From: Salinibacter sp. 10B
GTDB taxonomy: Bacteria > Bacteroidota > Rhodothermia > Rhodothermales > Salinibacteraceae
NCBI RefSeq assembly: GCF_002954405.1
Contig: NZ_MQWC01000004.1
Location: forward strand, 2,739,443 to 2,803,442
Reading direction: 5' to 3'
Length of the DNA stretch: 64,000 nucleotides
Below, one piece after another: positions 12,248 to 16,251 of the stretch. The notes below the pieces were generated by a model. The model saw only the letters and a program-made list of their open reading frames with translations, was not told where the DNA came from and ran no database searches. The position numbers were made by a program, and so were the translations under genes. Position 1 is the first letter of the stretch, and every line of letters starts with the position of its first letter.

Positions 12248-12476
12248 TCGGGCGACGACGATCGTTCTCCGGCGGCGGTTCCCCCTCTGATTCGTTCTAC
12301 TGCACCAATGATGTTCACCATGCGATCCCGTACGTTTCTCTGGCTGCTCCCCCTCCTGTTGATTCTCGGCTGTACCAGCTCGGCACAAATGGCCGATACG
12401 TCGGCCGGCGCGAAGAAGGCGGAAGACGCTGGCGAGGACCAAGCCAACTTCGAAAAAGATGCTGTGTTGCTAAACG

Positions 12477-13514
12477 TCAAGTTCCAGGGTGAAGCGACGG
12501 GTCGAACGAGGACTGGTTCTTCAGCACGCCGTAGCAAATGTGGAGGAGCTTCCGCATCGCAGCACCGATGATCACCATCTTTTCTTTCCCCCGCTCGGCG
12601 AGCCGGTCTCCGAGCGCTTCGACGGCGGCGTTGCACCGAAGGGCTGCAATTGCTGGGAAGTACAGTGCTCTTCGGAGCCGAGAACTCCCAACTTTTGAAA
12701 GCCGAGGTTTTCGATGAACCGAGCTGCCCGATTCGTGATGCGAGGGCGTCAGGCCGGCATATGCAGCCGCCTGGCGGGCGCACTCAAAGCGCTCGTGATC
12801 CCCGAGCTCCGCAAGCACGAGCGCAGCGGTTGTCGATCCAACCCCCGGGATCGTTTCCAGCAAGTCTCGGTTGCGGGCGAGGGTATCGGTGCTCTCGACG
12901 TGCTCGTCGATCTGATCTTCAAGCCGGTCGATCTGCTCGTTTATGCTTTCGAGCACCGACTCAAGCGAGCCGGTAACCGTCGGGTTTTCCGACTGGCGGA
13001 TCTGGTTTTTCAGACGGTCGTGCTCTTTTTTGAGTTGCTCAAGACCGCGGGTCATCTCCTTCAAGCTTTTTTGCTCCGAAGGTGTTGGTTCCCATAGACT
13101 TGGTTCCTCACGCTGGCAAAAGCGCGCGAGGAGACGAGCGTCCACCTTGTCGGTTTTCGACCGGTTGAGCTGGCTCTCAGCGTAGGCGCTTGTGCGTAGT
13201 GGGTTGACGATCGAGACGGTCAACCCGCGCTCGTACAAAAAGCGTGCAGCCGGGCGCTGGTAGTCGCCGGAGGCTTCGAGGCAGACGTGAATCTGCTCCG
13301 GACTTTCCTCCAGCCGGACATCGGCCTGTGTCTCGATCCAGCTGAGGAACTCATCGAATCCGTCTTTGGTGTTCGACACAGTTTTGGAAGCAAAGACGTC
13401 CTCCTCAGATCCAATCAGGGCGATTTCAAGGGACGCCTTGCTCACGTCAATGCCCACGTGATGTGCCGTCGGAGGAACGGAATCAGACGAACTCGAACGA
13501 TCAGGAGCGGTCAT
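12477..13514 (-). CDS. IS110-family recombinase/transposase
   Basis: Recombinase of 345 residues using an RuvC-like DEDD domain and a C-terminal Tnp_20 domain with a nucleophilic serine. The N-terminal acidic residues sit in HVGIDVSKASLEIAL, HVCLEASGDY and NRSKTDKVDARLLARFC. A coiled coil spans about 155-215 (RGLEQLKKEHDRLKNQIRQS). The C-terminal domain has TIPGVGSTTAALVLAELG, AAYAGLTP and LSKVGSSRLRRALYF. The frame is open further upstream to 13724, but ATG 13514 gives the usual family length and leaves the upstream stretch free for the guide RNA. The stop is 18 bases from the right end. Confidence 0.95.
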   Translation of the reverse strand: MTAPDRSSSSDSVPPTAHHVGIDVSKASLEIALIGSEEDVFASKTVSNTKDGFDEFLSWIETQADVRLEESPEQIHVCLEASGDYQRPAARFLYERGLTVSIVNPLRTSAYAESQLNRSKTDKVDARLLARFCQREEPSLWEPTPSEQKSLKEMTRGLEQLKKEHDRLKNQIRQSENPTVTGSLESVLESINEQIDRLEDQIDEHVESTDTLARNRDLLETIPGVGSTTAALVLAELGDHERFECARQAAAYAGLTPSHHESGSSVHRKPRLSKVGSSRLRRALYFPAIAALRCNAAVEALGDRLAERGKEKMVIIGAAMRKLLHICYGVLKNQSSFDPSLHPGT

Positions 13515-13701
13515 TGCGAGATCCAGACTAATGAATGCAGGCTCGACGATGAGAGCATCGCAGGCGCTCAGATGCTGTTCGGATTCGAACGCAATGAAGA
13601 GAGGGCAGGGACTGCTCTTTTTCTCGGGCTCATGGGAAAATTCCCAGGCCGGAACCATCGCACAGGTGGCCCTGCCCTCCAGCTCCGAGCGTCCTCGGAG
13701 C
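13512..13701 (-). ncRNA. Predicted IS110 bridge RNA with readable target and donor guides
   Basis: On the minus strand, in order: (i) a stem-loop GCTCCGAG-GACG-CTCGGAGC (13682-13701); (ii) a 10-base-pair stem GAGGGCAGGG/CCCTGCCCTC (13670-13679 with 13601-13610) enclosing a large loop with an inner hairpin, the target-binding loop; (iii) a 7-base-pair stem CATTGCG/CGCAATG (13590-13596 with 13512-13518) enclosing a second loop, the donor-binding loop. Guides: GCGATGG (13655-13661) equals the host sequence left of the CT core; GAAAAAG (13617-13623) is complementary to the core plus right host flank; ACAGCATCT (13570-13578) equals the element's right end plus core; ATTAG (13528-13532) is complementary to core plus left end. 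Folding was done by eye; transcript ends are not known. Confidence 0.82.
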
Positions 13702-16251
13702 AAGTTATAAACCATCAATTTCAAACTACACCAAACATATTAGCCATCGCGAAAAGCGATTCGCTCGGCGGCCTGTTCACCGTGTACCGAGACACGACGA
13801 ACGGCGCCTTGAAAATGGCGCTCGACACGAGCCAGATCGGTGAGGAGTACATCTACTTTACGCACACGGTCGACGGCGTGCTGGAGGCTGGCACGTTCCG
13901 GGGCGCCTACCGCGACAACGCCGTCTTCAAGGTGCGGCGGCACTACGACAAGATCGAGTTCGTGGAGGTGAACACCAACTTCCACTTCAACGACGAAAGC
14001 GCTCTCGCCCGCGCTTCGGACGCCAACATCAGCCCCTCGGTCCTGCACGTCGAGAAGATCGTCGCGACGGACTCTACGACGGGACGGATCCTGATTGAGG
14101 CCGACGATCTGTTCCTGACCGAGTCGCTCACGCAGGTGAAGCCCTCGCCCTCCCCCAACGATTCGCCGACCTCCTTCAGCCTCGGCAACCAGAGCAAGGA
14201 GAAGTCGAAGGTGCAGGCGGTTCACAACTATCCGAAGAATACGGACGTGGTGGTCGACTACGTCTTCGAAAACCCGCGCCCGGTCAACTCCGGCTCCGAC
14301 GCCGTCACCGATGCCCGCAACGTGACGATCACGCTGCGGCACAGCCTCATCGAGGTGCCGGAGAATGACTTCGAGCCCCGGTTTTCCGATCCGCGCGTGG
14401 GCTACTTTACCCAGCAGAAGGATGATCTGACCTCTACCAGTGCGACACCCTACCACGACCTCATCAACCGCTGGCACCTGAAAAAGAAGAACCCGGACGC
14501 CGAACTCTCCGAGCCAGTGGAGCCGATCACGTGGTGGATCGAGAACACGACCCCCGAGCGCATTCGGCCCATCATTCGCGAGGCGGTGCTGCAATGGAAT
14601 GAGGCCTTCCGGGAGGCTGGTTTCGAGAACGCCATTCAGGTGAAGGTGCAGCCGGACACCGCCTCCTGGGACGCAGGGGACATCCGCTACAACGTACTGC
14701 GCTGGACCTCCTCTCCCAATCCCCCCTTCGGCGGCTACGGCCCCAGCTTCGTCAACCCCCACACCGGCCAGATTCTGGGGGCGGACGTGATGCTCGAATA
14801 CGTCTTTCTCACCAACCGCGTCTCCTACAACAAGCTGTTTGAGGCGGCTGGGCTCCCGCTGCAGTCGGCCGATCACGGGTTCCAAAATCTGCCGAAGCAC
14901 GCCTGCACGCTGCCCTCCTTCCTCCACATGAATACAATGTTCGGCCGCACGGTGCTGGAGCCGACCGCCGGAGCCGACGCCGACAACGCGCAGAACGGCC
15001 CGTCAGACCTTGACGGTGAGATCACTCCCCTGATGGAGGAGTCGATCTACTACCTGGCGCTCCACGAGGTCGGGCACACGCTGGGCCTTCAGCACAACAT
15101 GAAGTCCTCCCAGCTGCACTCCGCCGACGAGGTACACGACGCGTCCGTAACCCGCGAGGAGGGACTCACGGGTTCGGTTATGGACTATCCCGCCATCAAC
15201 GTGGCACCTCCGGGCACGGACCAGGGGCAGTACTACACCACCACGCCGGGCCCCTACGACGTGTGGGCCATCAAGTACGGCTATACGCCCGGCATTGGCG
15301 AGGCGGAACTGAATGACATTCTTTCGCGCTCGACCGAGCCCGAGCTGGCTTTCGGCAATGACGCCGACGACATGCGGGCCCCCGGGAAGGCCATCGATCC
15401 GGAGGTCATGATCGGCGACATGTCGAACGAGGCACTCGACTACGCGGAGGGTCGCATGCAGCTCGTGGCCGATCTCATGGACGACCTGCTCCAGAAGTAT
15501 GAGGACCCGGGACAGTCGTACGAAGAGCTGCGCGACGCCTTTCTCGTCGCCACCGGCCAGCACGCCCAGATGGCGGCGGTGGCCTCCCGCTACGTGGGCG
15601 GCGTCTACGTCGACCGCGCGTTCGTCGGGCAGGAGGGCGCTACGGAGCCGTACCGGCCCGTCTCCCTCGACCGGCAGAAGCGGGCGCTCGACCTTCTGGG
15701 CGAGCACCTCTTCGCGCCGGACGCCTTTGCGATGATTCCGGATGAGCTCTACCGGCACCTGCAGCCGCAGCGACGGGGCTTCAACTTCTTCGGCGAGTCG
15801 GAGGACCCGAAGATCCACGCCCGCGTGCTCGGCATTCAGGAACGCGTACTGGCCCACCTCCTGCACCCGAACGTGCTGGAGCGAATGACCGACACGCGAC
15901 TCTACGGCAACGAGTACACGCTGGCCGCTTACATGGAGGATCTGACCAATGACGTCTTCGCGGCCGATGCCGACGGCAACGTGAACACGTTTCGCCAGAA
16001 CCTCCAGGTCGCGTACGTCGAGGCGCTGGCCACGGTCGTGGGCGACGCGGGTGACGAACAGTACGACCACCTCGCACAGTCCGCTGCCCTGCAAAGCCTC
16101 CAGCAGATTGAGAACATGATCGACGGAAAGAGCGGCGTGAACGCCGAGACGCAGGCACACACTGATCACGTGCTCCACCTCATTGAAACGGCTACCAGCA
16201 CCGAGTAACCCCGAATCCGCTTGCGGGGGGCGGCACATACTACTGGAACGA

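What the first reader, a model, noticed from the sequence alone, without database searches (positions are those of the whole stretch)
13512..13743. Bridge RNA of an IS110 element in which all four guides can be read and the target guides match the actual insertion site
Seen directly: the 227 bases upstream of the recombinase fold into a 5' hairpin and two stem-bounded loops. Loop 1 contains GCGATGG (matches host DNA at 13744-13750, left of the CT core on the element's strand) and GAAAAAG (matches 12452-12458, complementary to CT plus the right host flank). Loop 2 contains ACAGCATCT (identical to the element's right end plus core at 12457-12465) and ATTAG (complementary to core plus left end at 13739-13743). 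Base-paired programming of IS110 recombination was shown for IS621. Here it is legible from one genome: the RNA still specifies the site it inserted into. Mismatches next to the guides are mostly G-U compatible.
Basis: partly seen in the sequence, partly recalled or inferred. Interest (0 to 1): 0.93.

Follow-up and report, generated by a model that had tools for sequence, protein, structure and literature searches.

The report
Guide RNA of an IS110 jumping gene
This is an IS110-type jumping gene whose upstream RNA, predicted but not shown to be made, carries short guide sequences matching the exact site it sits in, and an identical copy elsewhere in the genome sits in the same 14-letter target, so it is very likely one more example of a known RNA-guided insertion system.

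Summary
The element (window 12459-13743, minus strand) encodes an IS110 recombinase related to IS621 and ISCro4. A 181-nt part of its 229-nt leader folds better than shuffled sequence, and two helices show compensatory changes.

(1) The one other full copy found in the genome, 100% identical, lies at an unrelated locus but shares the target CGCGATGG|CT|TTTTC. (2) The 9 genus relatives found with the interrupted gene lack the insert, and one reads exactly TTCGAAAAAGCCATCGCG.

Across 13 distinct elements, target guides follow the flanks: 0 of 200,000 re-pairings reach the observed match. The right donor guide follows the element's left end in three versions. The host genome has no unoccupied exact 14-mer and 57 unoccupied sites with 1-2 mismatches.

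Bridge RNAs were described in 2024, with guide-target covariation over thousands of pairs, so this is a new member of a known kind. The modest extra: several targets in this subfamily are other transposons or a dispersed repeat, and close relatives differ in the left guide while sharing the right one. RNA production and activity are untested.

The parts
12459..13743 (-). IS110 element, 1285 bp including one copy of the CT core (left end at 13743, right end at 12459)
   Evidence: Ends set by the two copies and by empty sites in relatives
12477..13514 (-). IS110 recombinase CDS, 345 aa plus stop
   Evidence: Pfam DEDD_Tnp_IS110 and Transposase_20; PDB relatives ISCro4 E 1.7e-68 and IS621 E 5.4e-67
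13524..13730 (-). Predicted bridge RNA (5' end set from the predicted -10 box; 3' end approximate)
   Evidence: Fold z -3.3 for 13524-13704; helix covariation; transcription not tested
13682..13701 (-). 5' stem-loop of the RNA
13670..13680 (-). Target-binding loop, outer helix, 5' arm
13655..13662 (-). Left target guide TGCGATGG (next two bases TT read the core)
13627..13650 (-). Apical hairpin of the target-binding loop
   Evidence: fold only
13617..13624 (-). Right target guide AGAAAAAG (last AG reads the core)
13600..13610 (-). Target-binding loop, outer helix, 3' arm
13570..13578 (-). Left donor guide ACAGCATCT
   Evidence: Identical to right end plus core
13528..13537 (-). Right donor guide CAT-TC-ATTAG, discontiguous
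   Evidence: Follows the left end in 12 of 13 distinct elements, degenerate in L011
13744..13751 (-). Left half of host target, CGCGATGG
   Evidence: Shared by both copies; exact in empty relative L032 and in empty loci L091, L092 of the second site
13742..13743 (-). CT core at the left end
12457..12458 (-). CT core at the right end
12452..12456 (-). Right half of host target, TTTTC
12475..12480 (-). Predicted -35 box TTGACG at the right end, overlapping the recombinase stop codon
   Evidence: function inferred
13737..13742 (-). Predicted -10 box TAATAT at the left end; 17 bases from the -35 box only in the circular form
   Evidence: function inferred
12320..12458 (+). Interrupted host gene, 5' part (start placed by eye against relatives)
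13744..16208 (+). Interrupted host gene, 3' part: DUF5117/DUF4953 met-zincin metalloprotease
   Evidence: 13746-16205 scanned

Best explanation
This is an IS110-group insertion sequence whose leader is predicted to be transcribed as a bridge RNA, and whose two predicted loops carry guides that match the target it sits in and its own ends. Shown from sequence: element ends, empty sites, a second identical copy in the same 14-bp target, and guide-flank and guide-end covariation over relatives. Inferred from the IS621 work: the element excises as a circle; the joined right and left ends rebuild a promoter (TTGACG, 17 bases, TAATAT) that drives the RNA and recombinase; the recombinase dimers hold target DNA in loop 1 and the circle junction in loop 2; strands are exchanged at the CT core. 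Insertion splits that promoter again, so an inserted copy would be quiet until the next excision.
For: Recombinase domains and close PDB relatives. Second copy 100% identical over 1300 bp that includes CGCGATGG and TTTTC, then unrelated flanks. Nine of 9 relatives found with the interrupted gene lack the insert; L032 reads TTCGAAAAAGCCATCGCG. Second site: 7 of 7 homologous loci compared lack the insert; the closest two (L091, L092) differ from the joined 14-mer by one base each. Guide-flank match, 13 distinct elements: right guide 5.04 of 6 against 2.95 for other elements' flanks; left guide 6.77 of 8 against 3.79 allowing two registers; 0 of 200,000 re-pairings as high for each. Right donor guide follows left end: CTAATATG/CATTCATTAG, CTGGTATG/CATTTACCAG, CTAGTATG/CATTCACTAG. 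Helix covariation. No exact unoccupied 14-mer; 57 unoccupied sites with 1-2 mismatches, near the number for the reversed pattern (53).
Against: No RNA or activity data. In three relatives (L040, L011, L056) the left guide fits only if shifted by one base. L044's left guide fits poorly (4 identical plus 1 wobble of 8); L042's mismatches next to the core; L040's right guide has two outer mismatches, L069's one inner mismatch; L066's right guide reads part of the core and its neighbour by G-U pairs; L011's right donor guide is degenerate. The 'handshake' base after the right donor guide pairs with the left target in only 5 of 13 elements plus 1 wobble. One of five helix measures does not exceed shuffles. 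The donor-loop outer helix is unclear. Solo left-end fragments L014 and L022 do not sit beside a match to their own left guide (by eye). The Rfam scan at gathering thresholds found nothing here.
Confidence: 0.97

Rival explanations
1. The shared 8 + 5 flank bases are part of the element (longer ends), so the guide match is only internal repetition.
For: Two copies share 1300 bp including these bases.
Against: Relatives without the insert carry the same or nearly the same bases at both sites, and other elements have other flanks that follow their own guides.
Confidence: 0.01
2. The recombinase itself reads the target by protein-DNA contact, and the RNA resemblance is a by-product of homology.
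For: Close relatives share recombinase, guides and parts of targets.
Against: L040 and L011 recombinases are 79% and 83% identical to the query, yet their left flanks differ from the window's and each follows its own guide; the re-pairing test on 10 guide clusters is also reached 0 or 1 times in 200,000.
Confidence: 0.02
3. Decayed, inactive remnant: the guide match is a fossil of past insertion only.
For: Only two full copies found; activity untested.
Against: Open recombinase frame, intact guides and ends, and two 100% identical copies, which points to recent movement.
Confidence: 0.1

Closest known systems
IS621 and its bridge RNA (IS110 group; Durrant 2024, PMC11208160; Hiraizumi 2024, PMC11208158)
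   Same: Same recombinase domains; RNA in the left end; 5' stem-loop plus target loop plus donor loop; LTG/RTG and LDG/RDG in the same order; CT core; discontiguous right donor guide; promoter across the end junction
   Different: Right target guide spans 8 positions including the core here, against 4 in IS621 (up to 7 when extended; longer ones in other orthologues are noted in that paper); different target. IS621's own letters were not aligned here
ISCro4 recombinase (PDB 9t56)
   Same: Closest solved structure by sequence, E 1.7e-68
   Different: Its RNA was not compared here
seekRNA of ISEc21 and IS1111-type elements (Siddiquee 2024, PMC11187229)
   Same: RNA-guided targeting with upstream RNA in IS110 types; ISEc21 targets a conserved region of IS3-family genes; natural reprogramming noted (passages)
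   Different: IS1111 types usually carry the RNA downstream, with reversed guide order
IS4321/IS5075 (IS1111 group)
   Same: Target the ends of another transposon family (title seen in a reference list)
   Different: Other IS group; Tn21-family ends

Membership tests
IS110-group element with bridge RNA | Recombinase with PF01548 and PF02371 | tested here: met
   both above cut-off
IS110-group element with bridge RNA | Long non-coding left end upstream of the gene, short right end | tested here: met
   229 nt upstream; 18 nt between stop codon and right core
IS110-group element with bridge RNA | 5' stem-loop then two loops, structure conserved | tested here: met
   for the 5' hairpin and target-loop helix only; donor-loop outer helix not tested
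IS110-group element with bridge RNA | Target guides complementary to both strands of target including core, covarying | tested here: met
   13 elements
IS110-group element with bridge RNA | Donor guides complementary to the element's own ends, covarying | tested here: met
   Right donor guide in three versions, degenerate in L011; left donor guide invariant, so silent on covariation
IS110-group element with bridge RNA | Clean insertion sharing only the core, no other duplication | tested here: met
IS110-group element with bridge RNA | Promoter across the joined right and left ends | tested here: met
   As a sequence match only: TTGACG-17-TAATAT. All 14 rows have a TTGA-type box; read 17 bases on, 7 of 14 have the weaker TATGTT
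IS110-group element with bridge RNA | RNA is made and bound by recombinase | not testable with these tools
   Needs RNA sequencing or a binding assay
IS110-group element with bridge RNA | Handshake guide after the right donor guide pairs with the left target | tested here: inconclusive
   First position pairs in 5 of 13, wobble in 1
IS1111 group | RNA region downstream of the gene | tested here: not met

The most novel reading that the evidence does not exclude
This IS110 subfamily lives on other mobile DNA: its guides are kept tuned to the ends or genes of other transposons and to dispersed repeats, and it moves between these hosts by changing the left half of the guide while keeping the right half. 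The insertion in the window's metalloprotease gene would then be a stray, a chance exact match to a target normally found in an IS256-type element.
Probability: 0.45. Interest if true: 0.45.

Novelty: new member of a known kind. Interest (0 to 1): 0.32.

Why it matters
It is an unusually complete natural test of bridge-RNA targeting from genome data alone: two identical copies in the same 14-bp target, empty sites in relatives, and relatives whose guides and flanks changed together. The set of related elements with altered guides could help answer how IS110 elements gain new targets, and it adds naturally long right guides. The mechanism itself is not new.

Tried and rejected
Rfam search of the window at gathering thresholds gave only a tRNA. 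One scan of genome contigs found a single relative, L011.

One search aligned empty sites with some loci on the wrong strand and a wrong slice; redone. One search took the wrong anchor for the right guide in two rows (L056, L045); redone, which is the one cited. The set is 14 insertions: all 13 hits (E up to 1e-70, 9 of 114 genomes) plus L011. The second copy (L006) was dropped before the re-pairing test because it equals L007. The 10-cluster test also dropped L011, L042 and L043 as near-duplicates. mis-placed helix arms in L041 and L066 and slipped by one in L056; replaced.

Longer-element and protein-readout rivals were considered and rejected (see rivals). Partial or more distant matches were left out. 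Of these, L008 (same genome, 35% identity), L046-L050 and the partial L067 were looked at by eye; the RNA plan of the distant ones could not be aligned with this one.

Left-end or right-end fragments L014, L022, L023 and L003 were left out of the counts. Counting L014 and L022 would weaken the match rate: their left flanks do not match their guides. L023 and L003 lack the guide region.

At the second site only 7 of the 16 matches were compared, those reaching towards the site. Of the 20 loci, 16 were compared; L106 (the query itself), L114, L121 and L125 were not.

Full report
What was checked. The region 12452-13751 was read directly. The minus-strand ORF from 13514 to 12477 encodes a 345-aa protein with both IS110 recombinase domains. 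Its closest solved relatives by sequence are the ISCro4 and IS621 recombinases, E 1.7e-68 and 5.4e-67. It has the G--P----SG motif quoted in PMC11187229 (GLTPSHHESG here).

Second copy. The own genome search found one more full copy, 100% identical over 1300 bp. The identity runs from CGCGATGG before the left core to CTTTTTC after the right end, and stops there; the outer flanks are unrelated. The shared target is CGCGATGG-CT-TTTTC.

Empty sites. Ten of 13 genomes of the genus hold the interrupted gene; the window's own is one, and the other 9 show no insert at the site. The interrupted gene is a DUF5117/DUF4953 met-zincin. At the second locus the insert lies just upstream of a Mutator (IS256-type) transposase gene. 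Seven of the 16 matches were compared there and all seven are uninterrupted. Against the joined 14-mer, L091 and L092 differ by one base each, L099, L096, L101 and L102 by two, and L103 by more.

Site choice. In the own genome no unoccupied exact match to GCGATGGCTTTTTC was found; there are 5 with one mismatch and 52 with two, about what the reversed pattern gives (57 against 53). Being unbroken, none of the 57 holds the element. Both copies thus sit in exact sites and none in an inexact one.

Covariation of target guides. Relatives were collected from the genus, family and order: 14 insertions, 13 distinct elements, 50-100% protein identity to the query. In all 13 the right guide is the 8 nt after AGCCCG, ending in the core reader AG (GG in L066). 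The left guide is the 8 nt after CCTG or CCTC, one base later in L040, L011 and L056. Scoring 1 for identity and 0.5 for G-U, right guides match their own flank at 5.04 of 6 non-core positions against 2.95 for other elements' flanks. Left guides score 6.77 of 8 against 3.79 allowing two registers, or 5.62 against 3.18 in one fixed register. Re-pairing reached the observed value 0 times in 200,000 in each case. With 10 guide clusters it was 0 for the right guide, 0 for the left guide with two registers, and 1 in 200,000 for the left guide in a fixed register. L040 and L011 differ by one base in the left guide, and their 8-nt left flanks differ by that same base. Weak cases are L044 and L042 (left), L040 (right, two outer mismatches), L041 (right, one outer mismatch), L066 (right, G-U at and next to the core) and L069 (right, one mismatch and one G-U).

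Donor guides. The left donor guide holds ACAGCAT and the right end ACAGCAT in all rows, so they cannot covary. The right donor guide does: CTAATATG with CAT-TC-ATTAG, CTGGTATG with CAT-TT-ACCAG, CTAGTATG with CAT-TC-ACTAG (first base T in L066 and L069), each with a 2-nt bulge. L011 is degenerate. This resembles the discontiguous pairing described for IS621 (section read, passages).

Structure and promoter. The 181-nt piece folds at -75.9 kcal/mol, z -3.3, 1 of 200 shuffles as good. The 5' stem-loop and outer target-loop helix keep 99.5% of 221 cells paired, with double changes in 9 of 17 pairs. Sliding the partner by 1-3 columns gives at most 3 such pairs. Four of five measures exceed all 500 shuffles; the number of further pair types does not (160 of 500). 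The joined ends give TTGACG-17-TAATAT in the window. All 14 rows have a TTGA-type box, and 17 bases on they read TAATAT, TAGTAT or, in 7 of 14, TATGTT. The recombinase stop codon lies inside the window's -35 box. Transcription is inferred.

What is known. Durrant 2024 (PMC11208160; abstract, sections 5, 6, 7, 12, 13, 38 and passages read) describes the bridge RNA, its two loops, its promoter and covariation over 5,511 target and 2,201 donor pairs. Hiraizumi 2024 (PMC11208158; passages only) gives the structures. Siddiquee 2024 (PMC11187229; passages only) gives seekRNA, natural reprogramming, and an IS110-type element targeting IS3-family genes. Other papers were seen only as search listings. 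So the find is a new member of a known kind. A search for papers with both Salinibacter (my guess at the genus, not given by any search) and IS110 found two, neither on bridge RNA by title and start of abstract.

Several targets in the set are other mobile or repeated DNA. They are the region just upstream of an IS256-type transposase gene (second copy), an IS605 OrfB reading frame (L066), an IS3-type HTH_Tnp_1 gene (L069), and, beside L011, a fragment of a Mutator-type transposase. L040's left flank is a dispersed repeat with 25 matches in 9 of 13 genomes, its own included. Of 16 of those loci compared, 15 align across the site; all 15 read GCC(T/G)(T/C)GA(T/C) on the left and 14 of them CTTTT on the right. 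Others are in a Y-family polymerase gene (L068) and the window's metalloprotease. For the remaining insertions the flanks were only scanned for ORFs. The window element, L040 and L011 share the right guide AGAAAAAG but differ in the left guide, each with its flank. This suggests, but does not show, that these elements live on other mobile DNA and retarget by changing half a guide. The proportion was not tested against a null.

Noticed in passing
L014:1501-1702: A left-end fragment 92% identical to this element, without recombinase, has the same left target guide but a flank reading CGCAGCAT|CT, which instead matches its own left donor guide GCAGCATCT; no explanation found.
   Followed up: partly
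L040, L011, L056: The left guide fits the flank only one base later than in the other ten distinct elements, and both ends share TCT, so the crossover point could lie one base away from CT.
   Followed up: partly
L008 (G000:C4:3931417-3932358): A third, distant IS110 recombinase gene (35% identity) in the same genome, with a differently organised leader; its guides were not resolved.
   Followed up: no
L013:1380-1500 and L107-L124: A dispersed repeat in the genus, followed in most copies by a palindrome of the form GTCCATTTTGG..CCAAAATGGAC, with up to 5 matches per genome.
   Followed up: partly
window 13514-13724: The recombinase frame stays open through the whole RNA region (415 aa from TTG at 13724), and is similarly long in L040 and L068 but not in most relatives; probably chance.
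   Followed up: no
L056:92-270: A second copy of the target-like sequence AAAACAGGCTCTTAG lies roughly 160 bases upstream of the insertion, in a palindrome-like stretch, and is unoccupied.
   Followed up: no
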